Source: Candidatus Competibacteraceae bacterium | GTDB lineage: Bacteria; Pseudomonadota; Gammaproteobacteria; Competibacterales; Competibacteraceae | Assembly (NCBI GenBank): GCA_027492875.1 | Contig: JAPUDV010000076.1 | Location: 1 to 64,000, forward strand | Direction of reading: 5' to 3' | DNA: 64,000 bases | Shown: piece after piece, positions 36,292-54,909 of the stretch | How positions within the stretch are numbered: position 1 is the stretch's first letter | How the letters are laid out: each line of letters begins with the position of its first letter | Program-made: the position numbers and the translations under genes | The notes under the pieces: model-generated | What the model saw: the letters and a program-made list of their open reading frames with translations, nothing else | Told to the model about the DNA's origin: nothing | Databases searched by the model: none

Positions 36292-37272
36292 CTAACGTCC
36301 CAGCGCACTCAAGGCCAGCGGATGAAATGGTTGTGCCGGATCGTCCAGACACCGGGCCAGCTCACCGGCCTGGGCCTGGATAATCGCCCGGTAAGCTTGA
36401 TGTTCCTCTTTCCACAACACGCGCTCGACCAGCCACGCTTCCCAAGCCCGATAAAACTCGCCGCGCCGCCCGTCCCGCAGCAGGCACGCGCCATCTTCGT
36501 GGATCTCGAAATCCTCGGGCGTGTAGTGATGCCGCGCCAGCCGGATCGCCAGGCGGTCCACCAACGGCCGCAGCGGCTCCATTAAATCCAGCGCGCAGGA
36601 CGGCTGCCCGCCATCGCTGGCGTGGAACACCCCCGCGAACGGGTCCAGCCCATAACCGTGCAGGGCATTACGCAGCTCGCTCAACAGCAGCGTATAGCCT
36701 AACGACAACAAGGCGTTCACCGGATCGGTGGCCGGCCGCTTGCGCCGCCCCGGAAATCCAAACGCCGTCCCGGCCAGCAGCGTGGGAAACGCCGCAAAGT
36801 ACGCCCGCGCCCCGCTGCCCTCGATACCGCGCAGACTGTCGGCGCTTTCGGCGTGCTCGGCCCGCTCGATGAACGGCTCCAGACCCGCCGCCATCTCGCC
36901 CTGATCCAGCGTGCGCAACAACCAGCGCTGGTTGCGCAACTTGACGTCCACCAGCGCGCGGGCGAACGGCAAGGCCAACGCCGGTTCGCGGATCAACTCA
37001 TACTGCCGCGCCCGCCGCCGCACCTGCCCGCCGCAATCGCCCAGCACATGACCGCGCAACCAGCCCCGACTGCTCAGCAGCGTCGTCGGCACGCCGCGCT
37101 CCAGCAACGCATCCAGCGCGTCCGTGGTCACTTGCACCCGGCCATAGACCATCACCCGCTCCACCTGCTCCAGCGGCAGGGACTGCTCGCCGCCCTCCCG
37201 GTCCTGCACCACCAAGCGCCGGCCGGCCTTGCACAGCCGCGCGCCCTGCTGATCCAGATACAAGGTACACAT
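36292..37272 (-). CDS. cas1: CRISPR integrase Cas1
   Basis: 326 residues from ATG 37272 (MCTLYLDQQG) behind GGAG; GTG 37281 overlapping the cas2 stop is the alternative. It shows the Cas1 layout: beta-rich N-terminal domain (VVQDREGG, VERVMVYGRVQVT), then the helical domain with the metal-binding residues in GIEGSGARAYFAAF (Glu), FHASDGGQPSCALDLMEP (His, then the Glu of LMEP). Together with Cas2 it inserts new spacers. The length is normal and there is no fused reverse transcriptase. Adaptation genes are often absent from type III-C loci, so this one may serve the type III array directly. Confidence 0.95.
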   Translation of the reverse strand: MCTLYLDQQGARLCKAGRRLVVQDREGGEQSLPLEQVERVMVYGRVQVTTDALDALLERGVPTTLLSSRGWLRGHVLGDCGGQVRRRARQYELIREPALALPFARALVDVKLRNQRWLLRTLDQGEMAAGLEPFIERAEHAESADSLRGIEGSGARAYFAAFPTLLAGTAFGFPGRRKRPATDPVNALLSLGYTLLLSELRNALHGYGLDPFAGVFHASDGGQPSCALDLMEPLRPLVDRLAIRLARHHYTPEDFEIHEDGACLLRDGRRGEFYRAWEAWLVERVLWKEEHQAYRAIIQAQAGELARCLDDPAQPFHPLALSALGR

Positions 37273-37277
37273 CGCCC

Positions 37278-37562
37278 TCACTCCACAATCATGACCGCCG
37301 CCGGGTCCAGTGCCGCCGCCAGCGCCCGACTTTCCCCCAGCGATTGCGCATCCTCAACCCGAAACCAATCCAGCCGATCCCCAGGCTCCAGCGGCTCGCG
37401 TCGCAGCAACACCTCCAATCGCGCCCGGCGCCGCGCATCCAGCGGACACACGAACACCGACTTCTGCACCGCCTCGCCGAAACCCCAGAGCAGCTTATGC
37501 AAACGGGTCCGCCGCCGCTGATCGGCAATGTCATACGCCACCAACCACCATTGCGCGGACAA
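37278..37562 (-). CDS. cas2: CRISPR-associated Cas2
   Basis: 94 residues. TTG at 37562 is chosen because GAGGAGG lies 6 bases before it, giving a protein that begins SAQWWLVAYDIADQRRR; the conserved Asp is in YDIAD. RLHKLLWGFGEAVQKSVFVCPLDARRR completes the ferredoxin-like fold. Cas2 dimers hold two Cas1 dimers during spacer capture. cas1 follows with overlap or a few bases. The operon runs toward the array, away from the divergent RAMP operon. Confidence 0.93.
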   Translation of the reverse strand: MSAQWWLVAYDIADQRRRTRLHKLLWGFGEAVQKSVFVCPLDARRRARLEVLLRREPLEPGDRLDWFRVEDAQSLGESRALAAALDPAAVMIVE

Positions 37563-37635
37563 CGCGGGCCTCCTCAATCATCCCTTCCTGGTTCTACAAC
37601 GCGGCGTGGCGCGAAATTTTTAATGGCATCCGGTT

Positions 37636-37663
37636 TGAAAAATTCATCCGTGGCTCCGTTGAG
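37636..37663 (+). promoter_or_regulatory. Shared ECF-like promoter motif, type III cas operon
   Basis: TGAAAAA (37636-37642), 14 bases, CGTTGAG (37657-37663). Same boxes and spacing as upstream of the sigma-CHAT operon. It lies 40 bases before the TTG start of the first RAMP gene. Confidence 0.5.
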
Positions 37664-37703
37664 GGGATGAACGCCTTGCAATTCCGCCAAAGGAGGATTT
37701 AAC

Positions 37704-38738
37704 TTGAGCGTGACAACTGCAAAGCACCGACAAGGACCACTCAAAATGAACGTGCTGGCTGAACTGCGAAGCCCGGACAGCGCCGTCCTGACCCTTCGTA
37801 CCCTCACTCCGCTCTACACCGGCGGCGTCGGCCAGCACGGCGACCAGATCCATCCCGCCGGCCTGCTGGGCGGGTTGCGCCGGTTTTCGTGCCTGTTGGC
37901 CGCTGCCGTGGGCGATGCCGGGTTTGAATACGCAGTTTGGGGCACGCCCACCGATGCGAAAAACCATTACGCCAAGCGGATCGGATTGCGGCTGGATCCC
38001 GCGGGTCTGGAAAAAATCAAACCGGTTGCCGGCAAGGGTTGCCTGAACTGGTCGCGCCCCGATGGACAACCGCGACAAGGCTGGTATTACAACGTCGCCC
38101 ACGAAGGGACGCTTCGCCTCACCCTGACCCGGCGCGGCATCAGTGACCCCCACTGGCAACTGCTGCTGCTGGCGCTGCGGATTCAGCTCAACCACGCCAC
38201 GTTCGGCAGCCGGGATCAATGGGGATTGGGCGTGCTGGCCGCTGACGATCTCCCGGCGGTGGACCCATTACAGCCGCCCTTGACCGCGCCGTTGCCCGAC
38301 CGGCCCGGCCTGCATCGCGCCCTGTTCGCCGAGATTCGGTTCAGCCCCCCGTTGCCGCCTAACTGGTCGGCTCGACTGGAACAAGGTCTGCGCTGGCGGG
38401 AAAAGCTTCGCAACAGCTTCCGCCAACCCGGAGCGGATGACTTGCGCCACTACCTGTTCGGTCAACTCAACCGCCACGGCAGCGCCATCAACTTTTCGGC
38501 GCTGTACCCGCACGGTGACAACGGCTGCGCATTGCGGATTTGGGGTGTGATCCCACATACGACGCCGTCCCAGTTCGGTGACCGGCGCGCCCAAGTCGTG
38601 CAAACGCTGCGGCAGGCGATGCGTCAGGGACCGGACGAAGTATGGCCAGGGGAACGCCGGATCGTCTGGCAGGACGGCGCGGAGCATCAAGCCAACTTGG
38701 CCAACTGGATTAACCAACTGGCGGGAGTCACCGCATGA
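37704..38738 (+). CDS. cmr1: Cmr1-like RAMP (Cas7 family) protein
   Basis: 344 residues. The TTG at 37704 is the start because AAGGAGG lies 7 bases upstream; ATG 37746 is the alternative. The N-terminal segment LTLRTLTPLYTGGVGQHGDQIHPAGLLGGLRRFSCLLAA is the Cmr1 hallmark (TPLYTGG, then SxxGxLRxW-like helix). Cmr1 caps the target-recognition end of type III-B complexes. First gene of a seven-gene operon whose members overlap or nearly touch; the next start overlaps its stop (ATGA). Confidence 0.8.
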   Translation: MSVTTAKHRQGPLKMNVLAELRSPDSAVLTLRTLTPLYTGGVGQHGDQIHPAGLLGGLRRFSCLLAAAVGDAGFEYAVWGTPTDAKNHYAKRIGLRLDPAGLEKIKPVAGKGCLNWSRPDGQPRQGWYYNVAHEGTLRLTLTRRGISDPHWQLLLLALRIQLNHATFGSRDQWGLGVLAADDLPAVDPLQPPLTAPLPDRPGLHRALFAEIRFSPPLPPNWSARLEQGLRWREKLRNSFRQPGADDLRHYLFGQLNRHGSAINFSALYPHGDNGCALRIWGVIPHTTPSQFGDRRAQVVQTLRQAMRQGPDEVWPGERRIVWQDGAEHQANLANWINQLAGVTA

Positions 38739-40060
38739 ACTTCGATATGCTGGCGGATGAGAATTTCCAGCCCAAAAAAGACGACTGGCTCCAGCAGGGC
38801 GCGCGACTGCGGCGCACGGTTCGCAAAAATAAGGATCTCACGGATCGGCGTACTGAGTTCCTGCGCCAATACGCCGTGATTGACGCCAACGGAATGGGTC
38901 AGGGCGAGGCGGCAATCCATCGTTGCAACAGCTCCGCATTGCTACCGACGGGGTTCAATACCACCGCCCGTCCGATGGAACAGGCGCTGGCCGCCTTCCC
39001 CCGCTACAGCGCCCGGCTACTGCTGACCTTCCGCCTGCTAACCCCGCTACTGACCAAGGACGACGACCCGTTCTATTTATTCGACAACCCGACACGCAAG
39101 GATCATTTGCTGGGTCTGCCCTATCTGTCCGCCGCCAGCCTCAAGGGCTTGTCGACCGATGCTTATCAGCGGGCATTTCCGGGCGCGACGCCCTGGACCG
39201 AACTTGGCGACAGCGACAAGGACCCCGACCGAACCCGCCTCTTCCGCCACGCCGATCCCCATGCCAAGCGGTTGTTCGGCATCGCCGACGACGGCGCAAA
39301 GATCGAGAGCGAAAAAGGCCGACTGCACTTCTCGCCGGTCTGGTTCAACCGCTTGCAATTGCTGGTGATGAACCCCGGTAATCCCGAAAACGCCATCGGC
39401 ACGCTGCCGATCCAGTTTGAAGCGGTCGCTCCCGACCAGACTGGTGTCCTGGAAGTGGTCTACTTCAATCCGCATGGCGTGAAAGACAGCGACGAAGCCA
39501 CCGTGCGCGCGGATCTGGCCCGCTGGCTGGCGGCGGTCGCCACCTGGTGGCCTGCGCTTGGATTGGGCGCAAAACGGCTGGCTGGTTATGGCGCCATCGA
39601 TATCGTGAAGGCGCAATTGCAGGCGGTCGGCTGGTCGGACATGGCCGGTGGCGCCTCAACGACGCCGGCCGCGCCGGCTCAGATCGAACCTCCACCCTAT
39701 TATCAGGAGTATCTACACGATGGCGGACCGCTGAACCAGGAAGCGTTTAATGCCAAGCTCCAAGCCGAACTGAAGCGATTGGATGCGGAAATGAGCCGGC
39801 TCAATCATGAAGCTCATGGCAAAGATGCCAAGATACGCAAACGAGCGCAACGGGAACTCAAAAGAGCCACGAACCAACGTACTAGCCGTGAACAGGAGTG
39901 GCTAGGTCAATACCGCAAGGTGCTGGAATATTGGACACAGTTCGGATCAACCACCACCGTCGAAGCGGCGGCTCCAAGGCTATTGCTGGCTTCCCACGAG
40001 GAAAAAGGGGAGGACAGTTGGATGAAATTAGCCCATTGGATTGCAGGAGAACAGCCATGA
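38735..40060 (+). CDS. RAMP-superfamily subunit with charged helical extension
   Basis: 441 residues. The RAMP fold is visible in LLLTFRLLTPLLTKDDDPFYLFDN, YLSAASLKGLSTDAYQRAF, GRLHFSPVWFNRLQLLVMNP and LGLGAKRLAGYGAIDI (the last a RAMP-type glycine-rich end). A C-terminal extension of about 130 residues is highly charged and helical (LQAELKRLDAEMSRLNHEAHGKDAKIRKRAQRE-like heptads), probably a coiled coil. It could be the Cmr6 or a Cas7-like subunit. Between Cmr1 and Cas10, with ATGA overlaps on both sides. The exact subunit name is uncertain. Confidence 0.65.
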   Translation: MNFDMLADENFQPKKDDWLQQGARLRRTVRKNKDLTDRRTEFLRQYAVIDANGMGQGEAAIHRCNSSALLPTGFNTTARPMEQALAAFPRYSARLLLTFRLLTPLLTKDDDPFYLFDNPTRKDHLLGLPYLSAASLKGLSTDAYQRAFPGATPWTELGDSDKDPDRTRLFRHADPHAKRLFGIADDGAKIESEKGRLHFSPVWFNRLQLLVMNPGNPENAIGTLPIQFEAVAPDQTGVLEVVYFNPHGVKDSDEATVRADLARWLAAVATWWPALGLGAKRLAGYGAIDIVKAQLQAVGWSDMAGGASTTPAAPAQIEPPPYYQEYLHDGGPLNQEAFNAKLQAELKRLDAEMSRLNHEAHGKDAKIRKRAQRELKRATNQRTSREQEWLGQYRKVLEYWTQFGSTTTVEAAAPRLLLASHEEKGEDSWMKLAHWIAGEQP

Positions 40061-43056
40061 GCGAAGGACAGATGGACGCCCGCCACCGCGACTTGATTCT
40101 GGCGGCGGAAATCAGTGGACTCATCCACGATACAGGAAAAGCGCGGGAAGAGTTTCCTCAGGAGAAACTGAGTGGCGGCTTAGGTTCAAAGCAAAAGAAA
40201 AAGAAATTTGATGAGCCGGCTAAAAAATGCCATCAGCGCGAAGCGCATGGCGCAATCCTGGAGGAAGGCCGCGCTTATCCGCCTGCGGACGAAGAGATTT
40301 GGTTGAAAAAAATCAAGCAGCACGAAGACTGGGCAGAGGTGCTGCGGTTACCGGAAAAGTGGATTAAAGCTAAAACTATTCAAGCCCACGGTTTGGGCGA
40401 TCCTCTGCGTCAACACCATGCGACCGGCAACTTCCCCCATGATCAGCTTACTCTGTTGGGCGATCTTTACACGCTTGGGGCTGACACTCGCGATTCCGCT
40501 TTGGATAAAGGCTCAGGCGGGACTGATTCGGGTAAGCAAAAGTCTGAATGTGGTTTTATTGCTGACAGTTTCGGCAATGAACATGAAACTTATAGTCAGG
40601 ATAAGTTGCGTGAACTGTGGCCCAAGGTTCGGGAAGCGATTGAACAAATACTGTTCAAGGACAGTGGGTGGCAAAATGTTCCCAAAACCCGTGAAAAGCT
40701 ACTTGACGCCATTGAACCGCTTTTTCGTCAGGCGCTGGGCGAAACACGCCGCCCCACTAATGATGTCACGCTTTGGCACCATAGCTATTCGGCTGCCAGC
40801 CTGTTCAAGGCAGCGGTTGCCGAGGGTGTTCTACGCCAGGACTTCCGTCACTGGCAAGATGATGATGGGCTCTTCAACCTGCCTCAGATGGGCCGGGTTC
40901 GCTTCCGGTTACTAGGGATTCGCTGGGATTGGGTCACGCTTGTCGGCGGCGCTTTGCAACCGGTCGTGTTAACCGCGTTGGCGAATCATCGGCAGCAAGC
41001 CATCACTGATCTGCGCCGGCGGCTGGAGGTGGGCTATCCCGTCGGGAACCTGATCTACGAGGACGATAACGGCGCCGTGTTCGTGGTCGGTGGTTTTTAC
41101 CATGGGCCGGAAGACCCCGACGGCCGGAAGACCGAAGCGCTGTTCCAACAACATATTCTGAACCCGCTGCAAGCCGGCATTCTGCAAGACCTCGCGCCAC
41201 TGGGCGCTGGCGTAGCGGTGCGGCTGGCGTGGACGCGACCGCGTCTGTATCTCACCGATTACCCGGAAGTCATGGCGACCGGCTGGACCCAGGACAGCGC
41301 GGATCGCCAACGACTCTTGCAAGTGGGCGAGGATGAGTTGCGCAAGCTCTGGGCCAGGCAGACCGGCGAAGGCCAGCAGGTGCAAATCTGCCCGCAATGC
41401 GGTTTGCGTCCGGGCTTGGCCCGGGAACTGGCGCTCAACGAAAGTGGGCTGAACGCCGACGATCCGAGCGGGCCAAGTGGCTTCTGCGACCATTGCCAGA
41501 CGCTCGTGGCGGACAGCGCCTACAGCCAGCGCCGCCGCGAAGCGGATCGGTTATTCGGCTTCGAACCCGAGAGCTTCAATCTGCAAGAGATCCGCCAGCG
41601 CAATCCGGCCGGCAACGCCCGGGTTGTTATGCTCTCCGTGCGCGTCAACCCTGAAATCATCGCGACTGGGGCAGTGTTGCTGACGCAACTGGCACGGCCT
41701 ATGGCGGATTTAACGGGAATGCGGGTGATCCGCGCGTCTCTGGCGGAGCAGGCCGGCGATGATCTGGAAAGACAGGTCTTGAAGTGCTTGCGTGAAGGCG
41801 GCGACGAACCAACGCTCTACAACCAGATTTCTCCCGAATTAGCCAATGATGCCCGTCTTCTGGTCGGTGACGATTATTGGTTGGACTTCCAGAAACAAGA
41901 GCGCAAGGTTAAGGGAAGTGATGGACGAGTGATGGGCGCACCGGCGGAAAAAGCGTTGCGCCTGCTCGACGAATTTTTCCTCCGTGAATCCATTCCCGCT
42001 GATGCCGGCCTTTACCGCCACGATGGCGACAAGTTATTGCTGTTTGGAATGCGAAAACACGCCTCGCCGGGTCGGCTGGTCCGCACCTGGGACGACTTGC
42101 GGCAAATCTGGCGGCAAATCCTCTGGGACATCGCCGGTGACACCCAGCACTGGCTGATGCCGCTGTCACTGGACGCCGGCGGTTTCCGCGTCATCGTGGC
42201 CGCTCACGATGCCCGCCAGGCCCTGAATCGGATTCATCGGCAGGTGAACAAGACCCTCGGCAAGGTGCGCGCCGGGCTGGACGTGCATGTCTCGGCCTTG
42301 GCCTTTCGCGAGAAATTCCCGCTGTACGTGGCCCTGGACGCGCTGCGCCGCATGGAACGCCGCATCGTCACCATCCCTCCGCAAACCTGGACCCTGCGCT
42401 CGGCCCTGGACCGCAACGGGACGCTCACTCTCAACTGGGACACCGAGGGGCAGGGTCTGGTGCAATGGACGGTGAACCTGCGCACCAGCGACCCCGAGCA
42501 ACCCGACCTCTGGTATCCCCACGCGGTGTGCGCTTCCCGCCCGGCAGGACCGGGACGGCTGGTCCGCCTGGATCAAATCGAACCGGGCGAAACCATCCGT
42601 CTGCGTCCGTCGACCTTCGACTTCCTGGTGCTGGACGGCACCGCCCGCCGTTACGACTTGCGTTATGACGCCACCGGTCGCCGCCCGCATTTCGTCCTGG
42701 GCGAACCGGGGCGACGGTCCTACCTGCTGGAACAGTTGCCGGAGTTGCTGACGCTGGCCGGACAGACCGGCTGGAACGCCAGCCAAGTCAAGGGCATTGT
42801 GGGCCAAGTCATCGAATGCTACGAAAAGTGGGTGCGTGATGTGCCTGCCGACTTGCGGGCGCAAGGCCGCGATGCCTGGCAGACGCACGGCGCCGCCATC
42901 TTTCGCCGTTACCTCAAAGACCGGCCCGAGGTCCGCGATCGCCTGATCGCGCTGCTCCAGAACGAAGAACGCGCCGGTCTGCTGTTCGATGCGTTCGAGT
43001 GGAGTGGATTGATTGAAAAAGACGCCCATTCGCTCGTTGTAGAAGAAGAAGCCTAA
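40057..43056 (+). CDS. cas10: Cas10 (Cmr2-like) with intact HD motif and inactivated cyclase site
   Basis: 999 residues. The N-terminal HD nuclease motif is present (LIHDTGK, His24-Asp25). A Cys4 zinc finger follows (Cys445, 448, 477, 480). The palm domain aligns well around LDAGGFRVIVAAHDARQALNRIHRQV and HVSALAFREKFPLYVALDALRRMERR, but the catalytic GGDD is Gly708-Gly709-Phe710-Arg711, so metal binding for cyclic oligoadenylate synthesis should be lost. Loss of the cyclase is the mark of type III-C. No CARF-domain effector is in the window, which agrees. The complex should still bind RNA and may cut DNA with the HD domain. Confidence 0.88.
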   Translation: MSEGQMDARHRDLILAAEISGLIHDTGKAREEFPQEKLSGGLGSKQKKKKFDEPAKKCHQREAHGAILEEGRAYPPADEEIWLKKIKQHEDWAEVLRLPEKWIKAKTIQAHGLGDPLRQHHATGNFPHDQLTLLGDLYTLGADTRDSALDKGSGGTDSGKQKSECGFIADSFGNEHETYSQDKLRELWPKVREAIEQILFKDSGWQNVPKTREKLLDAIEPLFRQALGETRRPTNDVTLWHHSYSAASLFKAAVAEGVLRQDFRHWQDDDGLFNLPQMGRVRFRLLGIRWDWVTLVGGALQPVVLTALANHRQQAITDLRRRLEVGYPVGNLIYEDDNGAVFVVGGFYHGPEDPDGRKTEALFQQHILNPLQAGILQDLAPLGAGVAVRLAWTRPRLYLTDYPEVMATGWTQDSADRQRLLQVGEDELRKLWARQTGEGQQVQICPQCGLRPGLARELALNESGLNADDPSGPSGFCDHCQTLVADSAYSQRRREADRLFGFEPESFNLQEIRQRNPAGNARVVMLSVRVNPEIIATGAVLLTQLARPMADLTGMRVIRASLAEQAGDDLERQVLKCLREGGDEPTLYNQISPELANDARLLVGDDYWLDFQKQERKVKGSDGRVMGAPAEKALRLLDEFFLRESIPADAGLYRHDGDKLLLFGMRKHASPGRLVRTWDDLRQIWRQILWDIAGDTQHWLMPLSLDAGGFRVIVAAHDARQALNRIHRQVNKTLGKVRAGLDVHVSALAFREKFPLYVALDALRRMERRIVTIPPQTWTLRSALDRNGTLTLNWDTEGQGLVQWTVNLRTSDPEQPDLWYPHAVCASRPAGPGRLVRLDQIEPGETIRLRPSTFDFLVLDGTARRYDLRYDATGRRPHFVLGEPGRRSYLLEQLPELLTLAGQTGWNASQVKGIVGQVIECYEKWVRDVPADLRAQGRDAWQTHGAAIFRRYLKDRPEVRDRLIALLQNEERAGLLFDAFEWSGLIEKDAHSLVVEEEA

Positions 43057-43070
43057 CCGCCGAGAGACCT

Positions 43071-43970
43071 ATGAAATCCCATCCTCTTTACCTGTTCGCG
43101 CTCGATCCCACCCACATCGGCGCGGGCGGCTACCGGCTGGGCCGGGTGGACAACACCATTCTGCGTGATGCCGCCACCGGCCTGCCCAAGCTTCCCGGCA
43201 GTTCGATCAACGGCGCCACCCGCTCCGCCGCGATCTATTCCCTGCCCGATGGCGAGCGGGAACCGGCGATGCAGTACGCCCGCGCCATCCTCGACGAGCA
43301 GAACAAGAAGCGCCCCCATCCCGGCGCCAAGGATCCGGTCGCGCGGGTGTTTGGCTACGCCGAGGGCGATGCCGAGGGGCAATCCCGCATCGGTCTGGTC
43401 TCGTTCCGCGACGCCGAAATCCTCGCCTTCCCGGTCCCGACCATGACCGGGCCGCGCTGGATCACCACGCCCGCCCTGCTGGAGGCCGCCGGTTGCCAGG
43501 ACGTCCCGAAGATCAACGATCCGACCAAGATCATCACCCAAAGCGTCGGCACCCCACCATCCCGGCTCAACCTGGGCTGGATTCTGCTGGACGCGGCACC
43601 CAAGCCAATTCCCTTCCCGGCTTTCCTGAACGATCAACCGGGCATGGCTCATGCCCGCGCCAACCTGGTGCTGGTTCACGACAGCCTGTTCCCCAGCCTG
43701 GTCAACGCCAATCTGGAAACCCGTACCTCGGTGTCGATCGACTTCGAGACCGGCGCCGGGGCGGATGGGCTGCTGTTCACTTACGAAGCCGCCCCGCGCG
43801 GCACGCTCTACCGGGGGCAGGTGGATTTCGACGACCAGCGCTTTTCCGCCGAATACCCGGGTGCGCTGGCGCTGGTGAAAAAGGGACTGATGCTGGCTTG
43901 TCAACTGGGCCTGGGTGCGATGACTACCCGGGGTTTTGGGCGGATGCAACCGATGCTGGCGGAGGCGTGA
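43071..43970 (+). CDS. cmr4: Cmr4-like Cas7 backbone subunit
   Basis: 299 residues. The Cmr4 start is clear: LYLFALDPTHIGAGGYRLGRVDNTILRDAATGLPKLPGSSING (the HIGAG and LPGSSxxG motifs), then RVFGYAEGD, SFRDAEILAFPVP, and a final GLGAMTTRGFGRM glycine-rich loop. Multiple copies form the crRNA-binding backbone and cut target RNA at six-base intervals; the catalytic Asp in this family lies in the first third, and VDNTIL supplies a candidate. 14 bases after Cas10, 1 base before Cmr5. Confidence 0.85.
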   Translation: MKSHPLYLFALDPTHIGAGGYRLGRVDNTILRDAATGLPKLPGSSINGATRSAAIYSLPDGEREPAMQYARAILDEQNKKRPHPGAKDPVARVFGYAEGDAEGQSRIGLVSFRDAEILAFPVPTMTGPRWITTPALLEAAGCQDVPKINDPTKIITQSVGTPPSRLNLGWILLDAAPKPIPFPAFLNDQPGMAHARANLVLVHDSLFPSLVNANLETRTSVSIDFETGAGADGLLFTYEAAPRGTLYRGQVDFDDQRFSAEYPGALALVKKGLMLACQLGLGAMTTRGFGRMQPMLAEA

Positions 43971-43971
43971 C

Positions 43972-44361
43972 ATGATCAATCTCGAACCGCTGGCCGCCAG
44001 GGCCGCGCAAGACATGGTGATTCCCACCACCCCCAAGGACTCGCTCAATCTCATCAACAAGGCGTTGATGGTGCTGGCCGAACAGGGCTTGTTCGCCTTC
44101 GGCTTGTTTCTGAACAGTCGCAAGGACCGGGAAGACGCCCTGGCCCGGCAAATCCACGCCGCCGTCAGCCGGTTGCTGGTGGACGCTAGCCTGGCCGCCA
44201 CGCCACCGAATGGCCTAGCCATCGCCGACTACTACAAGGCGCTGACCGAATCCCGCCCCAACGAGCCGGACGCTCAGGCCCTGCAACGGCTGATTCTCAC
44301 CAAACAGGTGGTGGAAACCGCCCTCACCTACGGGCGGTATCAGGCCCGATCGCTGACCTGA
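43972..44361 (+). CDS. cmr5: Cmr5-like small subunit (Cas11)
   Basis: 129 residues, all helical, matching Cmr5: an N-terminal helix (LEPLAARAAQDMVIPTT), then LAEQGLFAFGLFLNSRKDREDALARQI and the second half QRLILTKQVVETALTYGRYQARSL. Cas11 subunits line the inner belly of the effector next to the target strand. Start ATG 43972 chosen because it lies directly after the Cmr4 stop. Confidence 0.85.
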   Translation: MINLEPLAARAAQDMVIPTTPKDSLNLINKALMVLAEQGLFAFGLFLNSRKDREDALARQIHAAVSRLLVDASLAATPPNGLAIADYYKALTESRPNEPDAQALQRLILTKQVVETALTYGRYQARSLT

Positions 44362-44371
44362 GGCGCGCGCC

Positions 44372-45211
44372 ATGCCCTTTACCGGTCTGACCTTGGAACT
44401 GGAAACGCCGCTGCACATCGGCGCCGGACGGAGCGGGATGCTGGCGCGGGGTCACGGTTTCGTGCCGGGCCACGTCATCAGTTACGCGCTGGTCGCCACC
44501 ATTGGCAAAGCCCGTGGGGGCCAATCCGCCGATTTCGTCCGCGCCCTGACGGCCGTCTTGCAGGATGTGCGTTGCGGCCCGTTTTTCCTGCTGGACGCGG
44601 AAAAGCAACACCCTCTGTTGCCCCGGCGCGACCGGGAGCGCATCGAAAACCAGCATCTGACCGCCCGCAACCAGGTCACTCTCGACCCGCACGCCGGTAG
44701 CGCGGTGGAAAGCGCCCTGTTCGAGGTGGAAAGCATCGCCGCCCGGGTACTGCACGGTCCCCGGCGTGGCCAACCCGTGCAACTGGCCGGCGGTCTCTGG
44801 CATCGTGTTCCCCACCTGGCCGGGAAACCGCTCCAGGACTGGTTTTGTGCTGGCCTGCTGCTCGGCGGCGAACTCAAGACTGGGATGGGTCGGGTCAAGC
44901 TGGCGCGACAAGGCTGGCGACCGAACGGACCGCATTACGCCCAGCATCCCGGCTGGCCGGCGGACGAACGCGGTCTGCATTTGACCAAAGATACCCTCCT
45001 GCCCGGTCCCAGCCTGGACGGCGCGACCGATGCGCCACTGCAACCCTGGCTGGGCCGGTTGTTCGACCCACAACAGGGCTTCGGGCGACGCTTCAGCCCG
45101 CCGGCGCTGGTCCGGCTGGACGGCACGGTTCGGGAAGCCGGTGTGTTTCTGCCGAGCGATCGCGAGGTGGGTCTGGGCTGCTGGACGAGAACCGATGCCT
45201 CGGCTGACTGA
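44372..45211 (+). CDS. RAMP subunit, Cas5/Cmr3-like or Cmr6-like
   Basis: 279 residues. It starts with LTLELETPLHIGAGRSGMLARGHGFVPGHVISYALVATIG, a RAMP beta strand and glycine loop, and has LLLGGELKTGMGRVKLARQGW in the last third, a loop typical of Cas5/Cmr3 and Cmr6 proteins. No catalytic residue can be named. The operon has no other clear Cas5 candidate, so this is my first choice for the crRNA-handle binding subunit. Its 3' end overlaps cas6 by 17 bases. Confidence 0.65.
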   Translation: MPFTGLTLELETPLHIGAGRSGMLARGHGFVPGHVISYALVATIGKARGGQSADFVRALTAVLQDVRCGPFFLLDAEKQHPLLPRRDRERIENQHLTARNQVTLDPHAGSAVESALFEVESIAARVLHGPRRGQPVQLAGGLWHRVPHLAGKPLQDWFCAGLLLGGELKTGMGRVKLARQGWRPNGPHYAQHPGWPADERGLHLTKDTLLPGPSLDGATDAPLQPWLGRLFDPQQGFGRRFSPPALVRLDGTVREAGVFLPSDREVGLGCWTRTDASAD

Positions 45212-46049
45212 TTTCCACGGTCTGCGGATCTACGGTCTCGACTGCACCCTGCACAGTTCCCAGCCGTTGACGATGCGCGGCTATTACGGCGGCTGGCTGC
45301 GTGGTGTCCTCGGTCATGCCCTGTTTCGCGGCAACTGCGTTTACCCGGAACCTCGTTGCGCCGGATGCGCCCTCAGCAGCGGCTGTCCCTATCCCCAGGT
45401 GTTCAAGCCGCACTTGCTACCCGGCCAGGACAACCGGCTGCCACCCTACCTGTTGCACCACTGGAACCTCCTGGCGACCGGCACCCGCTTCAGCCTGCTG
45501 CTGCTCAATCCAGCGCTGGGTTACGCCGAGAACTGGCTGCGCCAACTCGACCGCTTCCTGCCGGACCTGGACATCGGCGGCCAGCGCGGCGTCCGGCTGA
45601 GCGAGGTCCGCGACCTGGCCAGCGGCCAAGTCGCCTTCCGCGCCGGCCAATTCGTCCCGGGCGCCCGACTCAACCCTCTGCACCCTCCACTCCCCACGGA
45701 CGAGCGCCTCACCGTGCGACTGCTCACCCCGCTGGTCAGCAAGCACCAGCACGCCGATCCGCTGTGGGGCGCCCTGCGTACCCGACTGCAGCGGCTGGTC
45801 AACGCCTACGGCGACGGCCAGCCGGTGATCGCGCCCGATGCCACGCCCTGGCGGCTGGCGACCGCCCGCCTGGAACCTCACACCGTTATCCAGGGTCTCG
45901 ACTCCCGCCGGGGCATCCGCGGCGTGCGCGGCGAATTGGCACTGACCGACCTGACGCCGGTGGGCGCGCAACTGCTAGCCGCCGGCAACCTGCTCCATGC
46001 GGGCGGCGAAGCCACCCTGGGTTTTGGGCGCTACGCCTGGCAATCCTGA
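45195..46049 (+). CDS. cas6: Cas6-family crRNA-processing endoribonuclease
   Basis: 284 residues from ATG 45195 inside the previous gene. Signature: an early MRGYYGGWLRGVLGHAL segment, a cysteine-rich knuckle (CVYPEPRCAGCALSSGCPYPQVF) typical of this Cas6 branch, and the glycine-rich C-terminal loop GGEATLGFGRY. Cas6 cuts the repeat transcript into crRNAs with an 8-base 5' handle. A histidine near the N terminus (GHALFRGNC) might be catalytic. Last gene of the operon. Confidence 0.8.
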   Translation: MPRLTDFHGLRIYGLDCTLHSSQPLTMRGYYGGWLRGVLGHALFRGNCVYPEPRCAGCALSSGCPYPQVFKPHLLPGQDNRLPPYLLHHWNLLATGTRFSLLLLNPALGYAENWLRQLDRFLPDLDIGGQRGVRLSEVRDLASGQVAFRAGQFVPGARLNPLHPPLPTDERLTVRLLTPLVSKHQHADPLWGALRTRLQRLVNAYGDGQPVIAPDATPWRLATARLEPHTVIQGLDSRRGIRGVRGELALTDLTPVGAQLLAAGNLLHAGGEATLGFGRYAWQS

Positions 46050-46713: not shown

Positions 46714-46998
46714 ATGGCTAAACCCGTGAATATCACGAGGCATGGCATGACCTTGGCGGTGCGGGAACACCTCGCCGCTGGTCAGTCCATCACCCGCCTG
46801 GAAGCTCTGGTGTTGTTTGGGGTCGCCAATTTGCCGGCCATCATCAAGGAGATGCGCGATCAGGGTTGGGTAATTCAATCGCGCTGGATTCCCTACGCCA
46901 CGGCGGTGCGGCGCATCAATGAACACGCCGTGCTGCAACCACCCGCCAACCTGCCGGTGCGGGAGATTCAGCTGACGGAGTACTGGGTCAATCGATGA
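46714..46998 (+). CDS. Helix-turn-helix-type small protein
   Basis: 94 residues. SITRLEALVLFGVANLPAIIKEMRDQGWVI resembles a winged-helix DNA-binding core of the kind seen in small phage and plasmid regulators (start TRxxALxxxGxxNLxxxIxxLRxxGW). GGAG precedes the ATG. The stop codon overlaps the start of the helicase gene (ATGA), so the two are probably co-translated. It may bind DNA near the operon or assist the helicase. Confidence 0.65.
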   Translation: MAKPVNITRHGMTLAVREHLAAGQSITRLEALVLFGVANLPAIIKEMRDQGWVIQSRWIPYATAVRRINEHAVLQPPANLPVREIQLTEYWVNR

Positions 46999-48866
46999 AG
47001 CGCCGTTTCTCGATGCGCCAGCGACGGATGCTCGCCTGGATCGCGGCGGGACGTTGCCAGCAATGCGATCAACCTCTGGAACCCGGATTTCATGCCGACC
47101 ACCGCCGCCCGTTCGCTCAAGGCGGACCGACGCTGATTCAGAATGGCCAGGCCCTGTGCGGACCCTGTAACCGCAGGAAAGGAACGACGATGCCCACGCT
47201 CAAGCTCCGCCCCTGGCAACAGGATGCTCACCACAAAGCCCTGACCTGGCTGGTCCAGGAACGCCAGGATCGACGGTTTCTGATCAATGCCGCGCCGGGG
47301 GCCGGCAAGACCCGGGTGTCGTGTGCCATTGCCCAGACCCTGCTGGCGATAGGGGAAATCGACCGGGTGGTCGTCATCGCCCCGCGCGCCGAGGTGGTCC
47401 AGCAATGGGCCGATGACTTCCGACAGGTCACCGGACGTTTCATGAGCAAGGTCACCGCGCGGGATGGCGAGATCCACCGTCTGGGCCTGGATGTCTGCGC
47501 CACCTGGGCCGCCATCCAGGGCTTGCAGGATGCCCTGCAAGCCGTGTGTCGCGCGGCCCGGGTGCTGGTGATCTGCGACGAACACCACCATGCCGCCGTG
47601 CAGGCCGCCTGGGGCGAAGGCGCGGACAGCGCCTTCACCGACGCCACGTTTGCCCTGGTGCTGACCGGCACGCCGATCCGCTCGGACGGGGCGGAATCGG
47701 TGTGGCTGCCTTACGATGACGCCGGAGCGATCGACCATCCCGAGGGTGGTACCTACACTCTGACCTATGGCCAGGCGGTCGATCTCGGTTACTGCCGGCC
47801 GGTGACCTTTCATCGCCATGAAGGCCGGTTCACCGTTGACCTGGAGGATGGGCAGACGGTGCAGGTCTCCGGTCGGCAACCGGCTACCTTCCCCCGGCCG
47901 CTGGCCCGGATTCCCGGCTTGCAACGGGCGCTCGATTTCTATCGATTGGCCTGTACGCCGCAGTACGCCGCCGATGGGCGCACCCCGTTGGCGACCGGCT
48001 ATCAGGCCACCATGCTGGACAGCGCCGCGCAGAAACTGGATGAGCTGCGGCTGCGGTTGCCCAACGCCGGCGGGCTGGTGATTGCGCCCTCCATCGAGAT
48101 GGCCGAGTACATAGCCCGGCTGATCGAGCAGGTGGAAGGCGAAGCGCCGGTGTTGGTGCATAGCCAGATGCCCAACCCCGACCTCAAGATCAAGACCTTC
48201 AAGAACACCGCCAAGCGCTGGCTGGTGTCGGTGGCCATGATCTCGGAAGGCGTCGATATCCCGCGCTTGCGGGTGCTGGTCTATCTGCCCAGCGCCCTGA
48301 CCGAACTGGCGTTCCGTCAAGCCATCGGCCGGGTGGTGCGGACCTATGGTCCCGACGACGACACTCGCGCTTATGTGGTGATGCCCTCGTTCGACACTTT
48401 CGAGCGCTACGCTCGGCGGGTCGAGGAGGAAATGCCGGCCGCGCTGCGGGTCCATCGCGAACCGCGGAGCAAGCGCTGCCCGATCTGCGGCGAGGAGTGT
48501 GCGCTGGGCGCGCAGGAATGTTCCGGTTGCGGCCATGAGTTCCCGGTCGCTGCCGCGAGGTTTAAGCCGTGTCCGACCTGCGGGGCGCTAAATGCCAAGA
48601 GCGCCGTCACCTGTACGACCTGTGGCGCAGGGTTCGCCAGCGGCTTCACCCTGACCCTCGACGAGGCCCTGCGCACCGGCGCGATCGTGCGTGGCATGGA
48701 CCTGGGTGAGAGCGAGGTTCGCGAAGCCGAACAAATGGCGCCGCTCATTCGCCAGCGCGTGTTGCACAGCGGCGACGAGAAGCTGGTGCACATCTTGAGG
48801 GTTTTACCCGACGAAAGCTGGGCGCGGTTGCGGGATATTCTGGCGGTTCCGGGTCGCGCATTGTAG
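46995..48866 (+). CDS. HNH nuclease-SF2 helicase fusion with C-terminal zinc ribbons
   Basis: 623 residues. Residues 15-63 form an HNH domain: Cys21/Cys24, the HxDH of His33-Asp35-His36, Asn50, Cys55/Cys58. A DEAD/DEAH-type SF2 helicase follows: GAGKT (102-106), DEHHH (195-199), LTGTPIRSD, and the motif VI segment QAIGRVVR. The last 140 residues carry two zinc ribbons (CPICGEEC, CSGCGHEF; CPTCGALN, CTTCGAGF). Such fusions occur in phage replication and in restriction-like defence systems; nuclease plus translocation on DNA is the expected activity. Third gene after shared promoter motif B. Confidence 0.85.
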   Translation: MKRRFSMRQRRMLAWIAAGRCQQCDQPLEPGFHADHRRPFAQGGPTLIQNGQALCGPCNRRKGTTMPTLKLRPWQQDAHHKALTWLVQERQDRRFLINAAPGAGKTRVSCAIAQTLLAIGEIDRVVVIAPRAEVVQQWADDFRQVTGRFMSKVTARDGEIHRLGLDVCATWAAIQGLQDALQAVCRAARVLVICDEHHHAAVQAAWGEGADSAFTDATFALVLTGTPIRSDGAESVWLPYDDAGAIDHPEGGTYTLTYGQAVDLGYCRPVTFHRHEGRFTVDLEDGQTVQVSGRQPATFPRPLARIPGLQRALDFYRLACTPQYAADGRTPLATGYQATMLDSAAQKLDELRLRLPNAGGLVIAPSIEMAEYIARLIEQVEGEAPVLVHSQMPNPDLKIKTFKNTAKRWLVSVAMISEGVDIPRLRVLVYLPSALTELAFRQAIGRVVRTYGPDDDTRAYVVMPSFDTFERYARRVEEEMPAALRVHREPRSKRCPICGEECALGAQECSGCGHEFPVAAARFKPCPTCGALNAKSAVTCTTCGAGFASGFTLTLDEALRTGAIVRGMDLGESEVREAEQMAPLIRQRVLHSGDEKLVHILRVLPDESWARLRDILAVPGRAL

Positions 48867-48918
48867 CGACCGAAAGTATATAATATCAAAGTTGATACAA
48901 CTGTTCTGGGGAATTCCG

Positions 48919-51900
48919 ATGTCCATCGTTGACCTGCTGGACCGCCTGCCATCGCCGGTTGCGTTTCCGCTCCAAAGCTACCTGGAGGAATCTCACCCGC
49001 ATCTGAAGCTGTGGGCGATCTGCGACTCGGTGGAACTCCTGCTGCGGCTGCTGGTGTTCGTCGGCATCGCCGATCTGGCGGGTCAGGACGGGAAACCGCC
49101 CCAAGCGCTGCGGGCCAAGCTGCGCGAGCCGATCGAGCGGCCGACCTTCGGCGGCTGGTGGGGCATGGCGGAGGCCGTTACCGAGGCCTTGGAACGGCAA
49201 CCGGACAGCCTCGTTCCAGAGCTGGCGCCCTGGGTACGCAACACCCTGGCGCCATTATTGAAAAGTGGAGGCCATCATGCCGAAAACTCCTTGCTGGCGT
49301 TGCGCAACCGCCTCGCCCACGGCGGCGGGGTGACACGGGCGTTGGCGGAGAAACTGCTGGCGGTTTGGCGGGAGCCGTTCGAGCAGGCGATGCAGACGAT
49401 CGCCTGGTTGGGTGAGCTGACGTTGGTGGTGCCAGGACTCCATGGTTACAGCTGCCTGCGGGGTCCGACACCGGAAGGGGTTCCCTACACGCCCGGCAAT
49501 CTGGCGACGGTGGCTGAAGCGCTGGCGCGAGCGGACGCCGTGGCCGTGGTGCGGGGCGACCGCGCCCTGCCGCTGTGGCCGCTGCTGTTGTATGGCCCAC
49601 CCGGCAACCCCTACGACGACCACCCCAGCGGGGAGAGCGTGCCGCAAGTCTACGTGCGCCAAGGCGATATCCGCTTGCAATACACGCCGCTGGGCGCGGA
49701 AGTGTGTCACAGCGAAGCCGGCGACGCCGCGCTGGCCCGATTCCAGGAGTTGTTCCACATGGATCGAGCACCGTCACCCACTCGTCAAGCGCGCTTCCAG
49801 GTCCGGGATTTCCGGGACCGAATTCGCAGTCTCGCCGACCGACTAGTGGGGCGGACGGTGGAGTTGGCGACCCTCCGGGGCGTGCTGGAGGCGACCGCTG
49901 AAGGCGTGATCTGGGTAGCCGGGACGGCCGGCATCGGTAAATCCAGCCTGCTGGCGCGGATCGCCCAGGACTATCTGGAAGCGCCACCCTCCCATATGTG
50001 GGTGTTGCCTTACTGGTTCGATGCCGGCGACGCGCGGTGCCAGCGCGAGATGTTTCTTCGCTTTGCCATCGAACGGTTGCGAGACTGGCTCTGCGTCGCA
50101 CCCCCGGACGCGGGCCAGGACCCGCCCAAGCCGCTGATCCAGTTGCGCACGCTGCTCCAGCAAGGCCACGGTCAGCGCGTCGTCTTCATCCTCGATGGGC
50201 TGGATGAAATCACGAGCCGCGATCGTCATTTTGCCCGCGATATCCCGCTCAGTTTACGCCTGCCCGGCGTGGTCTGGCTGTGCGCGGGGCGACCGGAACA
50301 GGGCTTGTCTGAGCAGTTCAATCCGGAGATCGCACATCATCCCTTCCCGAACGGGTTGCCGCCGATGCGTGAGGGCGATATTCGAGAAATGTTGCTGAAC
50401 AATCTGACGGGGGAGTTGTGTAAACGGCTGATCGGTCATGATCAAGAGCGTGGTGAGCAAGTAAAAAATCCGTTCATCGACAAGGTTGCTAAGGCCGCGC
50501 ATGGCCTGCCGTTGTATGTGCGCTATGTGATTAACGATATTTGGGCGGGCCGTTACCGCCTGCTCGATGCGGGCGAACGCTTGCCGCCCAGTTTGAACGC
50601 TTATCATGAAGAACATTTACGGCGTTGTAGCGTGAGCAGCTTGCACCAAGTCCTGACGCCTATCGTGGCCTTATTGGCGGTGATGTATGAAGAACCGACC
50701 GTGGACATTCTCGCGGCGTTGCTGCGGCAACGCACATTGATTCCCGCCGGCGAACGGGGACTCGCGTTGGTGCAGGAGGGATTGAACGCGCTGGAGTCCA
50801 TGATCAAGCGTAAGCGAGATGAGGACGGACAAATTTACTATGCCTTGCATCATCACTCGTTACGCCAGCATATCCAGAACAGTCCACCTACACGTCAGGC
50901 AGTGGAAACGGCGCGGGAATTTTTGGGCGATGCGGCGCTGCAAGTGAAGCCGGATGCTGCGGCGCATTATCTTTATCGCTATGGCATTGATCATTTGGTC
51001 GAAGAAGAAATGGGGCGGCACCAAGACGCCTTACGCTTGCTGACACGATTTGATTATCTGATGGCGCGGTTTCACATCTTGCAGGACACTCCAGTAGCAG
51101 CAGATCTGCGTATTGACTGGCAAACCTACCTGGAAACGGGTGGAGTTTTGGATGATGAAGCGCGGATTTGGCAAGCATTTTTCCGGGAGAACGAGCATAT
51201 CCTGCGGCGCGGGGATGAAGACTGGCCTGCCTATAAGATTTTACTGCAACTGGCCATCGAACATGCGGATGATAGCCCGATTACGCAACAAGCCGAAGCA
51301 TGGCTGGCGCAACCCGGGAATTGTGATTGGGTGTGGCTGCGGAATCCGTGTCGGCCAGAGCATGTTCCCTTTAATCCCGTAGTACAAATCTTTGAAGGTC
51401 ATGCTGATACGGTTAATGGCGCACTGGAACTCAGTGACGGGCGTATTTTATCCTGGTCTGAAGACTGTACGTTGCGAATTTGGGATCGTGATGATAGCAG
51501 TCGTTTTATTGAATTAAAAGGACATACTCGTGCGGTCACTGGCGCGAAGGAATTACCCGATAATCGTATTATCTCATGTTCTAAAGATGGTACTTTACGA
51601 TTCTGGGACAGCACGACAGGCTATTTATTAGAAGAGTTATATTTGAATGAAAATGAATTATCTGGTGTCGATATATTGCCTAATGGAAAAATAATTTTCT
51701 ATACAAACAAATATCTACTCAAACTTATAGATATTGATGGAAAAATTATTAGTCTAAATAAATCAAGTGAGCATATACATAATTTCAATGTATTGCCGGA
51801 TAATACTATTGTTTCTTGGAACTACCAGCAATATTATTGTTGGAATGGTGAAACGGGAGAACAGGTTTCGAGAGACGAAAATATGTTGAAAAATATTCGA

Positions 51901-53811
51901 GAAAATAAAGAAATTACATCAAAATTTGATGATAATGTCTTAGAAATTTTGAGTTCTCTTGCCGAAGATTTTTGTTATCACTCCTCTTTAGAAAAGATAT
52001 ACACATTATCAGATCAATATAAAATATTAGAATTAGGTTTTGGTGCGTTATGGCTTCTCGATTATAGAAATATGAATGTTGTACTCAGACAAGTCTATAA
52101 TGAAAAAATTAGTGGGATAGAAATTTTATCAAAAAATGATATTCTAATTTGGGAAGATAAATATGTTCGGATATTGCATATTTCATCTAATTTGCCATTA
52201 GTAGAATACCAGGAAATAGGAAAATATATATCTCAAGATGACGATAAAAGAACAGCAACAAATGTAAAGCGACACTTTGCGGAAGAGCAAAATGTTAAAC
52301 TATTAGAAAATAATCGTGTGCTATCTTGGGACTATGCCACTATGGGTATTTGGGACAGTGACACGGGAAAAAATATTTCAGTATACCTTTTTAATCCAAC
52401 CTCTGATGATGTACTTTCAATATTAGATGTTGAAGTACTAAATAACAGACTATTTCTATTGCAATCTGGTGGTGGTTACTATTTGTTCAATGACAACAGC
52501 TTTTATGAAATAATGGCAACAAATTTTATTCAACTTCCCGATCAAAACTTTGCTTGCATTTATTTTAATAATCAAATAGCAATACGTTGCGGAAGAAGCG
52601 GTAAAATTATAAATCAACTAAAGGGGCACCTAAAACGAATAAATGATATAAAGTTGCTGCCTAACGAACAAATTCTTTCATGGTCAGAAGACTGCACATT
52701 ACGTCTATGGGATTTTACAACCGGTGAGTGCATAAAAGTAATGCAAGGTCATATAGATACTATTAATGGAGTCCATATAGTATCAAACGAGCGTATTGTT
52801 TCATGGTCAGAAGATCGCACATTGCGTCTATGGGATTCTACCACTGGCGAATGTATAAGAGTTATGCGAGGTCATAAAAGTGCTATTACAGGAGTACATC
52901 TATCAGATGAATATATTTTCTCTTGGTCCGGGTCTGAAGATATTTGGTGTTTATGGGATGTGATTACCGGGCAATTCACAAACAGCATAAATGTTATGGA
53001 TAAACATATTGATATTATTATAAAAACATATCTTTTACCAAATGAATTTATTCTGTCAATTTCGAAAGATGGAGTTCTCTGTTTGTGGAGCATTAAAAGT
53101 TGTGATTTTATTGAAAATATAGTAGTTAAAGGGAATGATATACACAATGTTATTGAATTAACTAATGGTAATTTTTTGGTTTCAATAAAAAATTTAGAGT
53201 GTTATGAGTCATTAAGTAATACTGAATTATGTATTATTAGCAAAACAGAAAAAAGATTTACTGCTACAATTCCAAGCTACTACGATCAAAAAATTGAAAC
53301 ATTAGATGATGGCAACTTCATTCTTTGGTCTAATTATAGATCTAGCTTTAGTTCAAAGATTGTAAATGGATTTACGGGGAAAATTATTAGTACTCTGGCT
53401 GATAAAGAAAATTATATAGAAAAAATTTATATTGAAGATAACAATATTCTTGTCCTCATCAATAATGAGCATTTCTGGACCGTAAAATTTTTTTATTGTG
53501 ATGAAAATTATATAGAAAATGAAGAAAAACGCATCTTAGTATATAAAGATGATTATTATATATGTAATGAACTTTTTTATTCTTTATTTGGTGTTAAAAT
53601 GATAAATCACGAATCAAATGATAGAGCAGTTAAAATAGTTGAGTTCAGTATCTATTGGCACGCAGACTGCGTAATTAAATACAATATTATGTCCGATGAC
53701 GGAACCTATATCGTCTCCACCGCCGATGGGCGAATCGTTTGTCTCAAGCTCTATCGAGGGGCAAGCCGCATCACCATTGATGAACTTGCAGATGATTACG
53801 ATCAATCATAG
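48919..53811 (+). CDS. STAND ATPase with N-terminal HEPN-like motif and AT-rich WD40 sensor region
   Basis: 1630 residues from ATG 48919. The N-terminal 270 residues contain RNRLAH (Arg129 to His134), the Rx4H spacing of HEPN RNases, in a helical context. The NTPase core has GTAGIGKSS (Lys341) and LDGLDE (residues 425-430), followed by winged-helix-like and helical parts. WD40-type repeats start near residue 820 (IFEGHADTVNGALELSDGRILSWSEDCTLRIWD). From about 51580 to 53690 the reading frame is strikingly AT-rich, while the start and the last 100 bases are GC-rich. STAND proteins with WD40 repeats sense invaders in bacteria; a TATAAT box at 48879 may drive it. Confidence 0.8.
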   Translation: MSIVDLLDRLPSPVAFPLQSYLEESHPHLKLWAICDSVELLLRLLVFVGIADLAGQDGKPPQALRAKLREPIERPTFGGWWGMAEAVTEALERQPDSLVPELAPWVRNTLAPLLKSGGHHAENSLLALRNRLAHGGGVTRALAEKLLAVWREPFEQAMQTIAWLGELTLVVPGLHGYSCLRGPTPEGVPYTPGNLATVAEALARADAVAVVRGDRALPLWPLLLYGPPGNPYDDHPSGESVPQVYVRQGDIRLQYTPLGAEVCHSEAGDAALARFQELFHMDRAPSPTRQARFQVRDFRDRIRSLADRLVGRTVELATLRGVLEATAEGVIWVAGTAGIGKSSLLARIAQDYLEAPPSHMWVLPYWFDAGDARCQREMFLRFAIERLRDWLCVAPPDAGQDPPKPLIQLRTLLQQGHGQRVVFILDGLDEITSRDRHFARDIPLSLRLPGVVWLCAGRPEQGLSEQFNPEIAHHPFPNGLPPMREGDIREMLLNNLTGELCKRLIGHDQERGEQVKNPFIDKVAKAAHGLPLYVRYVINDIWAGRYRLLDAGERLPPSLNAYHEEHLRRCSVSSLHQVLTPIVALLAVMYEEPTVDILAALLRQRTLIPAGERGLALVQEGLNALESMIKRKRDEDGQIYYALHHHSLRQHIQNSPPTRQAVETAREFLGDAALQVKPDAAAHYLYRYGIDHLVEEEMGRHQDALRLLTRFDYLMARFHILQDTPVAADLRIDWQTYLETGGVLDDEARIWQAFFRENEHILRRGDEDWPAYKILLQLAIEHADDSPITQQAEAWLAQPGNCDWVWLRNPCRPEHVPFNPVVQIFEGHADTVNGALELSDGRILSWSEDCTLRIWDRDDSSRFIELKGHTRAVTGAKELPDNRIISCSKDGTLRFWDSTTGYLLEELYLNENELSGVDILPNGKIIFYTNKYLLKLIDIDGKIISLNKSSEHIHNFNVLPDNTIVSWNYQQYYCWNGETGEQVSRDENMLKNIRENKEITSKFDDNVLEILSSLAEDFCYHSSLEKIYTLSDQYKILELGFGALWLLDYRNMNVVLRQVYNEKISGIEILSKNDILIWEDKYVRILHISSNLPLVEYQEIGKYISQDDDKRTATNVKRHFAEEQNVKLLENNRVLSWDYATMGIWDSDTGKNISVYLFNPTSDDVLSILDVEVLNNRLFLLQSGGGYYLFNDNSFYEIMATNFIQLPDQNFACIYFNNQIAIRCGRSGKIINQLKGHLKRINDIKLLPNEQILSWSEDCTLRLWDFTTGECIKVMQGHIDTINGVHIVSNERIVSWSEDRTLRLWDSTTGECIRVMRGHKSAITGVHLSDEYIFSWSGSEDIWCLWDVITGQFTNSINVMDKHIDIIIKTYLLPNEFILSISKDGVLCLWSIKSCDFIENIVVKGNDIHNVIELTNGNFLVSIKNLECYESLSNTELCIISKTEKRFTATIPSYYDQKIETLDDGNFILWSNYRSSFSSKIVNGFTGKIISTLADKENYIEKIYIEDNNILVLINNEHFWTVKFFYCDENYIENEEKRILVYKDDYYICNELFYSLFGVKMINHESNDRAVKIVEFSIYWHADCVIKYNIMSDDGTYIVSTADGRIVCLKLYRGASRITIDELADDYDQS

Positions 53812-53921: not shown

Positions 53922-54158
53922 ATGTACAAATGGATCAAGCTAGCGATTGACCTACTATTTCTCCTGATCAGTGGAACGATCCTGACTTATCTTTACCTGC
54001 TGAATCAGTCACGCCCGATCGACGGCCCCAACAAGATGCTGTCGGCGACGCCATCCATCGTGCAGGTCAAGCAGAATGCCGGGCCGCCAACGTCGGGCAC
54101 GATTGCCGCAGACCTTCTCGTCAACATTCCGCTTCTCATGGAGATCGAGCTTGATTGA
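53922..54158 (+). CDS. Small single-pass membrane protein
   Basis: 78 residues. One clear membrane helix (LAIDLLFLLISGTILTYLYLL, about residues 7-27) follows a short basic start, and a soluble tail of about 45 residues carries no motif. First gene of a four-gene operon; the next start codon (TTG 54151) lies inside its end. Small membrane proteins of this kind often act as effectors or anchors in defence operons, which is inference here. Confidence 0.65.
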   Translation: MYKWIKLAIDLLFLLISGTILTYLYLLNQSRPIDGPNKMLSATPSIVQVKQNAGPPTSGTIAADLLVNIPLLMEIELD

Positions 54159-54876: not shown

Positions 54877-54909
54877 CATTCAAAGCGTGGCAACGTGGAG
54901 ACCGCGGGC

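What the first reader, a model, noticed from the sequence alone, without database searches (positions are those of the whole stretch)
51580..53690. AT-rich sensor region spliced into a GC-rich STAND gene
Within one uninterrupted frame, composition falls sharply from GC-rich to strongly AT-rich for about 2.1 kb over the WD40 region, then returns to GC-rich for the last 100 bases. The ATPase half matches the genome. This looks like replacement or transfer of the ligand-sensing domain from an AT-rich donor, as expected in an arms race over target recognition.
Basis: seen in the sequence. Interest (0 to 1): 0.72.

Follow-up and report, generated by a model that had tools for sequence, protein, structure and literature searches.

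The report
AT-rich sensor in mosaic bacterial NLR-like gene
One bacterial defence-type gene has a GC-rich switch-and-effector half like the rest of its genome and a strikingly AT-rich sensor half, most likely because the sensor portion was exchanged with AT-rich relatives; the same pattern arose separately in a distant relative, so it looks like repeated sensor swapping rather than a single splice.

Summary
The composition break is real and extreme. Gene 48919-53811 (1630 aa) encodes HEPN-like effector – NACHT switch – WD40 sensor, beside a type III-C CRISPR-Cas operon. GC3 is 0.79 up to 50368, 0.58 to 51361, 0.23 to 53641, then 0.50 in the tail. No other 1-kb stretch in about 0.4 Mb of sampled host sequence is below 40% GC. 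The drop is graded, not a clean splice: it starts inside the NACHT/linker part, which is still orthologous to a GC-rich Thiocapsa copy. Twenty-six other WD40 ORFs from relatives show no such drop. GC-rich copies in Thiocapsa and Contendobacter share the first blade and the C-terminal tail, so the AT-rich piece sits between native ends. The only other intact HEPN-NACHT-WD40 gene found (another order) carries a different linker+WD40 module, yet shows the same step (0.66 to 0.23 to 0.73). Caballeronia has the same chassis with a non-WD40 C-terminus of uniform GC3. Sensor turnover on a conserved chassis is therefore supported. A single recent AT-rich donor is not shown: no donor was found, and in-situ AT drift is not excluded.

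The parts
48919..53811 (+). HEPN-like – NACHT – WD40 STAND gene, 1630 aa (ATG 48919; upstream TTG at 48892 possible)
48919..49410 (+). N-terminal HEPN-like helical effector domain; RX4H motif RNRLAH at 49303-49320 (residues 129-134), invariant in Thiocapsa, Contendobacter and Caballeronia; G786 has RNDLAH
   Evidence: alignments; G786 sequence; model; VIA-align top rows are HEPN toxins, Z 7.3-6.7
49906..50292 (+). NACHT P-loop NTPase (GTAGIGKS Walker A)
   Evidence: Pfam PF05729 6e-11
50368..51360 (+). intermediate-composition segment (GC3 0.58): C-terminal NACHT half and helical linker; residues 690-812 are 62.6% identical to GC-rich Thiocapsa
51361..53640 (+). AT-rich segment (GC3 0.23-0.25): WD40 propeller region, regular and degenerate blades
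52663..52902 (+). two adjacent, most regular WD40 blades, 79% identical over 117 nt, 123 nt apart
53641..53811 (+). C-terminal tail (GC3 0.50), homologous to the tails of the GC-rich Thiocapsa and Contendobacter copies
36292..46049 (.). type III-C CRISPR-Cas genes (Cas1, Cmr1, Cmr6, Cas10c, Cmr4, Cmr5, Cmr3, Cas6) upstream; CRISPR array at 28167-~36000
46995..48866 (+). HNH + ResIII/SF2 helicase gene between cas6 and the STAND gene

Best explanation
The gene is an NLR-like STAND receptor: a HEPN-like effector (predicted RNase), a NACHT switch, and a C-terminal WD40 propeller region that would hold the switch off and detect a ligand. By family analogy, ligand binding would release and oligomerise the NACHT part and activate the HEPN part, arresting the cell. 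Its chassis (effector, NACHT, linker, first blade, C-terminal tail) belongs to a lineage with GC-rich copies in Thiocapsa and Contendobacter. The WD40 interior was most likely exchanged, in frame, with AT-rich relatives of the same linker+WD40 type, probably by recombination tracts that also reached back into the NACHT/linker part, giving the 0.79/0.58/0.23/0.50 staircase. Sensor exchange on this chassis has happened more than once. Shown: architecture, composition, native ends, different sensors in homologues. Inferred: donor exchange, defence role, HEPN catalysis, activation mechanism.
For: Extreme synonymous-codon anomaly confined to the 3' part, with codons 1-500 host-like. First blade and tail match GC-rich Thiocapsa and Contendobacter copies, at 0.62-0.64 GC in the tail. 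26 other WD40 ORFs show no drop greater than 0.09 in GC3, and 44 NACHT genes of the family have a mean N-to-C difference of 0.01 (sd 0.07) against 0.44 here. Best WD40 matches lie in AT-richer loci: G450 (GC 0.36) for blades 1-2 and G423 (GC 0.43) for the regular blades; both genes carry a related linker on a different effector, DUF4062-like by recalled similarity. Homologous chassis carry different sensors: another linker+WD40 type in G786, non-WD40 in Caballeronia. Drops of at least 0.15 occur in 11/55 NACHT genes against 0/37 background genes.
Against: No donor sequence found by DNA or protein search. The decline starts inside orthologous NACHT/linker sequence and a smooth curve fits as well as steps. 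AT-rich matches may partly reflect shared amino-acid bias. G786 shows the same step with another sensor type, which could point to a common cause acting on sensors rather than to donors. The enrichment test is one of two versions; the first, with a cruder gene classification, was not significant (p = 0.12-0.16).
Confidence: 0.55

Rival explanations
1. In-situ AT drift: the sensor region evolves fast, with weak codon selection and AT-biased mutation, so it becomes AT-rich in any host without a donor. The composition reflects a mode of evolution, not an origin.
For: Graded decline rather than a clean edge; AT shift within orthologous linker sequence; same step in G786 with an unrelated sensor type; 3' GC3 drops enriched in NACHT genes; degenerate blades without recognisable relatives.
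Against: Conserved regular blades are as AT-rich as degenerate ones. Other WD40 and NACHT genes of the same family stay at host composition. Some NACHT genes rise instead, e.g. 0.33 to 0.62. An 815-codon frame stays open, so selection on the protein is not relaxed.
Confidence: 0.25
2. Ready-made mosaic: the whole gene arrived already mosaic from another bacterium, and the step is older than its presence in this genome.
For: Rare, patchy gene on chromosomes and a megaplasmid. G786 shows the same profile, and its chassis is GC-richer than its host (GC3 0.66 v 0.49).
Against: The chassis 5' part fits host codon usage. A 45-codon relic of the same N-terminus lies directly after cas6 in the corresponding CRISPR locus of another genus of the family (G018), suggesting a resident gene. 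G786 has a different linker/WD40 type.
Confidence: 0.15
3. Assembly artefact: the AT-rich piece is foreign sequence joined by misassembly of the draft genome.
For: The genome is a 146-contig draft.
Against: The frame is continuous across the whole AT-rich piece; the piece encodes WD40 blades; the sequence on both sides of it, first blade and tail, matches two independent genomes.
Confidence: 0.03

Closest known systems
Antiviral STAND receptors (Avs) and bacterial NACHT (bNACHT) proteins
   Same: Tripartite effector – STAND NTPase – variable C-terminal sensor, as summarised in PMC10907252
   Different: No PADLOC model matches; the sensor is WD40; strong composition step inside the gene; no tested antiphage activity
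HEPN-STAND fusions (HEPN superfamily survey, PMC3710099)
   Same: N-terminal HEPN fused to a STAND/NACHT NTPase in bacteria
   Different: The text passages read describe STAND fusions with TPR, S1 or OB-fold parts; the WD40 combination here was not seen in them
DUF4062-NACHT-WD40 proteins (NWD1/TEP1 type; bacterial Swarozyc, PMC13174449)
   Same: G423 and G450 genes carry a related linker+WD40 sensor module; their DUF4062-like start was recognised by eye, not by profile search
   Different: The effector here is HEPN-like, not a TIR-like NADase
DGR-diversified STAND sensors of Thiohalocapsa (PMC10907252)
   Same: Sensor part of NACHT genes diversifies while the NTPase is conserved
   Different: Those are C-type-lectin domains with small variable regions; here whole WD40 propellers, and no DGR was identified beside the gene

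Membership tests
STAND NTPase, NACHT clade | NACHT P-loop NTPase domain above curated cut-off | tested here: met
   PF05729, 42.9 bits v cut-off 26.7
STAND NTPase, NACHT clade | C-terminal superstructure-forming repeats | tested here: met
   WD40 PF00400 2.5e-25, five stretches
HEPN superfamily effector | RX4-6H motif | tested here: met
   RNRLAH in the window gene, Thiocapsa, Contendobacter and Caballeronia; RNDLAH in G786
HEPN superfamily effector | HEPN four-helix fold | tested here: inconclusive
   model pLDDT 60 overall, about 64-89 in the helical part; best VIA rows are HEPN toxins at Z 7.3-6.7 but unrelated helical bundles follow closely; no Foldseek match at E <= 0.001
Known Avs / PADLOC defence systems | match to a PADLOC-DB model | tested here: not met
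   0 families
Antiphage defence receptor | ligand-triggered protection against phage | not testable with these tools
   needs experiment
Type III CRISPR accessory gene | conserved location in type III loci | tested here: inconclusive
   beside III-C in the window, relic after cas6 in G018; Cas genes not seen around the Contendobacter, Thiocapsa or G786 copies in the ORF lists read
DGR-diversified sensor | adjacent DGR reverse transcriptase with template/variable repeats | tested here: inconclusive
   one RVT_1 match in the genome, on another contig (G000:C145), its type not established; repeat search of 25-64 kb gave no template/variable pair

The most novel reading that the evidence does not exclude
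Bacterial NLR-like genes repeatedly replace their sensor halves from compositionally foreign, often AT-rich pools while keeping effector, switch and C-terminal tail, so that intragenic composition steps mark sensor-exchange events and can be used to find them across genomes.
Probability: 0.3. Interest if true: 0.62.

Novelty: new member of a known kind. Interest (0 to 1): 0.42.

Why it matters
Sensor variability of STAND receptors is well known, but direct traces of how sensors are exchanged inside one gene are rarely pointed out. This gene and its G786 counterpart mark the position of exchange inside the coding sequence, with native sequence kept at both ends. A composition scan could therefore reveal sensor-exchange events genome-wide.

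Tried and rejected
Donor search by DNA and protein in plasmids, phages and viral contigs: no donor found; WD40 matches were only generic. First genome-contig scan with the full protein found no relative. More intact homologues by profile search in 369 class and 398 phylum genomes: none besides the window gene and G786. Structure of the WD40 region from one sequence was poor (pLDDT 40) and not used to count blades. Sharp-splice model rejected as unproven. First STAND-versus-background test used a loose regular expression that misfiled several NACHT genes and was not significant; repeated with genes defined by the NACHT hits. DGR hypermutation considered: no diversity-generating pair near the gene, and a 2.3-kb tract is far larger than a variable region.

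Full report
Observation. The frame 48919-53811 encodes 1630 aa without interruption. Pfam finds NACHT at 330-443 and WD40 repeats from about 822. GC3 along the gene is best described as 0.79 (48919-50367), 0.58 (50368-51360), 0.23 (51361-53640) and 0.50 (53641 on), but a smooth cubic fits equally well, so 'sharp' is too strong. The AT-rich part is exceptional for this genome: in 412 kb of it the lowest-GC 1-kb windows are the ones here, and outside the window sequence none falls below 0.40. Holding amino acids constant, codons 901-1500 fall at or below the 0.1st percentile of host chunks, while codons 1-500 are ordinary. Among ORFs of at least 500 codons in the loci fetched by then, this gene has the largest GC3 split.

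What the gene is. The N-terminus carries RNRLAH, also present in Thiocapsa, Contendobacter and Caballeronia, and RNDLAH in G786. A three-sequence AlphaFold model is a helical bundle whose best structural matches are HEPN toxins, at modest Z. HEPN-STAND fusions are known (PMC3710099). PADLOC has no model for it. Upstream lie a large CRISPR array and a type III-C operon. In another genus of the family (G018), the corresponding operon is followed directly by a relic of the same N-terminus, 67-70% identical over about 45 codons.

Homologues. The chassis is rare. Contendobacter SCELSE-3-Con (G024/L091) has a 480-codon derivative lacking the Walker A region and most WD40 blades. Thiocapsa imhoffii (L090) has a decayed, frame-broken copy; its matches cover residues 10-275, 419-569, 603-856 and the tail 1578-1622. 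Both are GC-rich in the first blade and the tail. Caballeronia pSBC2-1 has an intact 1349-aa relative with a non-WD40 C-terminus and flat GC3 of 0.69. G786, from another order and a host of about 49% GC, has an intact HEPN-NACHT-WD40 gene, 38% identical over residues 7-689. Its GC3 is 0.66 to codon 799, 0.23 to 1129 and 0.73 in the last 15 codons. Its linker does not match the window's but matches linkers of cyanobacterial NB-ARC proteins.

Interpretation. If the step were inherited from a common ancestor, the two sensors should be the same module; they are not. If AT-richness were general for WD40 or NACHT genes here, relatives should show it; 26 other WD40 ORFs and 44 NACHT genes do not, apart from G019:C226 and weaker cases. 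Yet GC3 drops toward the 3' end are enriched in NACHT genes compared with other long genes, 11/55 v 0/37 (a looser version of the test was not significant). Recurrent exchange of sensor parts from AT-rich pools explains most of this. The related linker+WD40 module on another effector in the AT-richer genomes G423 and G450 fits. The graded onset inside orthologous NACHT/linker sequence (at identical residues GC3 falls from about 0.9 to mostly 0.5-0.7 while Thiocapsa stays at 0.7-1.0) means that exchange tracts reached beyond the sensor, or that drift contributed. No donor was found.

Mechanism, inferred by family analogy (APAF-1-like and Avs-like receptors, PMC13174449 and PMC10907252): the WD40 region holds the NACHT switch off; ligand binding permits oligomerisation; the HEPN part cleaves RNA and stops the cell. 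None of these steps was tested here.

Noticed in passing
L031:6258-6527 (G018:C70): A 45-codon relic of the HEPN start, 67-70% identical, directly follows cas6 in the corresponding type III CRISPR locus of another genus, as if the STAND gene was lost there.
   Followed up: partly
L091/L002 (Contendobacter) and L090 (Thiocapsa): Both GC-rich homologues have lost the Walker A region and almost all WD40 blades while keeping the first blade and the tail; the deletion limits differ, which suggests parallel inactivation of the switch.
   Followed up: partly
L168 (G019:C226), about 751-3399: An unrelated AAA/TPR STAND gene in the same family shows GC3 falling from 0.80 to 0.43 (minimum 0.27), followed by a GC-richer tail.
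   Followed up: partly
L260, L261 (G788), L252 (G784): STAND genes in the order of G786 show GC3 shifts inside the gene in both directions: 0.33-0.34 to 0.62 in genes with regular WD40 arrays, 0.50 to 0.23 in L252.
   Followed up: partly
window 28167-~36000: Very large CRISPR array with about 107 repeats of GTCACAAAGCCCTATTAGCGGGCGAGTGTTTCTGAG.
   Followed up: no
window 54076-57587: Three genes downstream (266, 297 and 600 aa) without informative family matches apart from TPR in the third.
   Followed up: no
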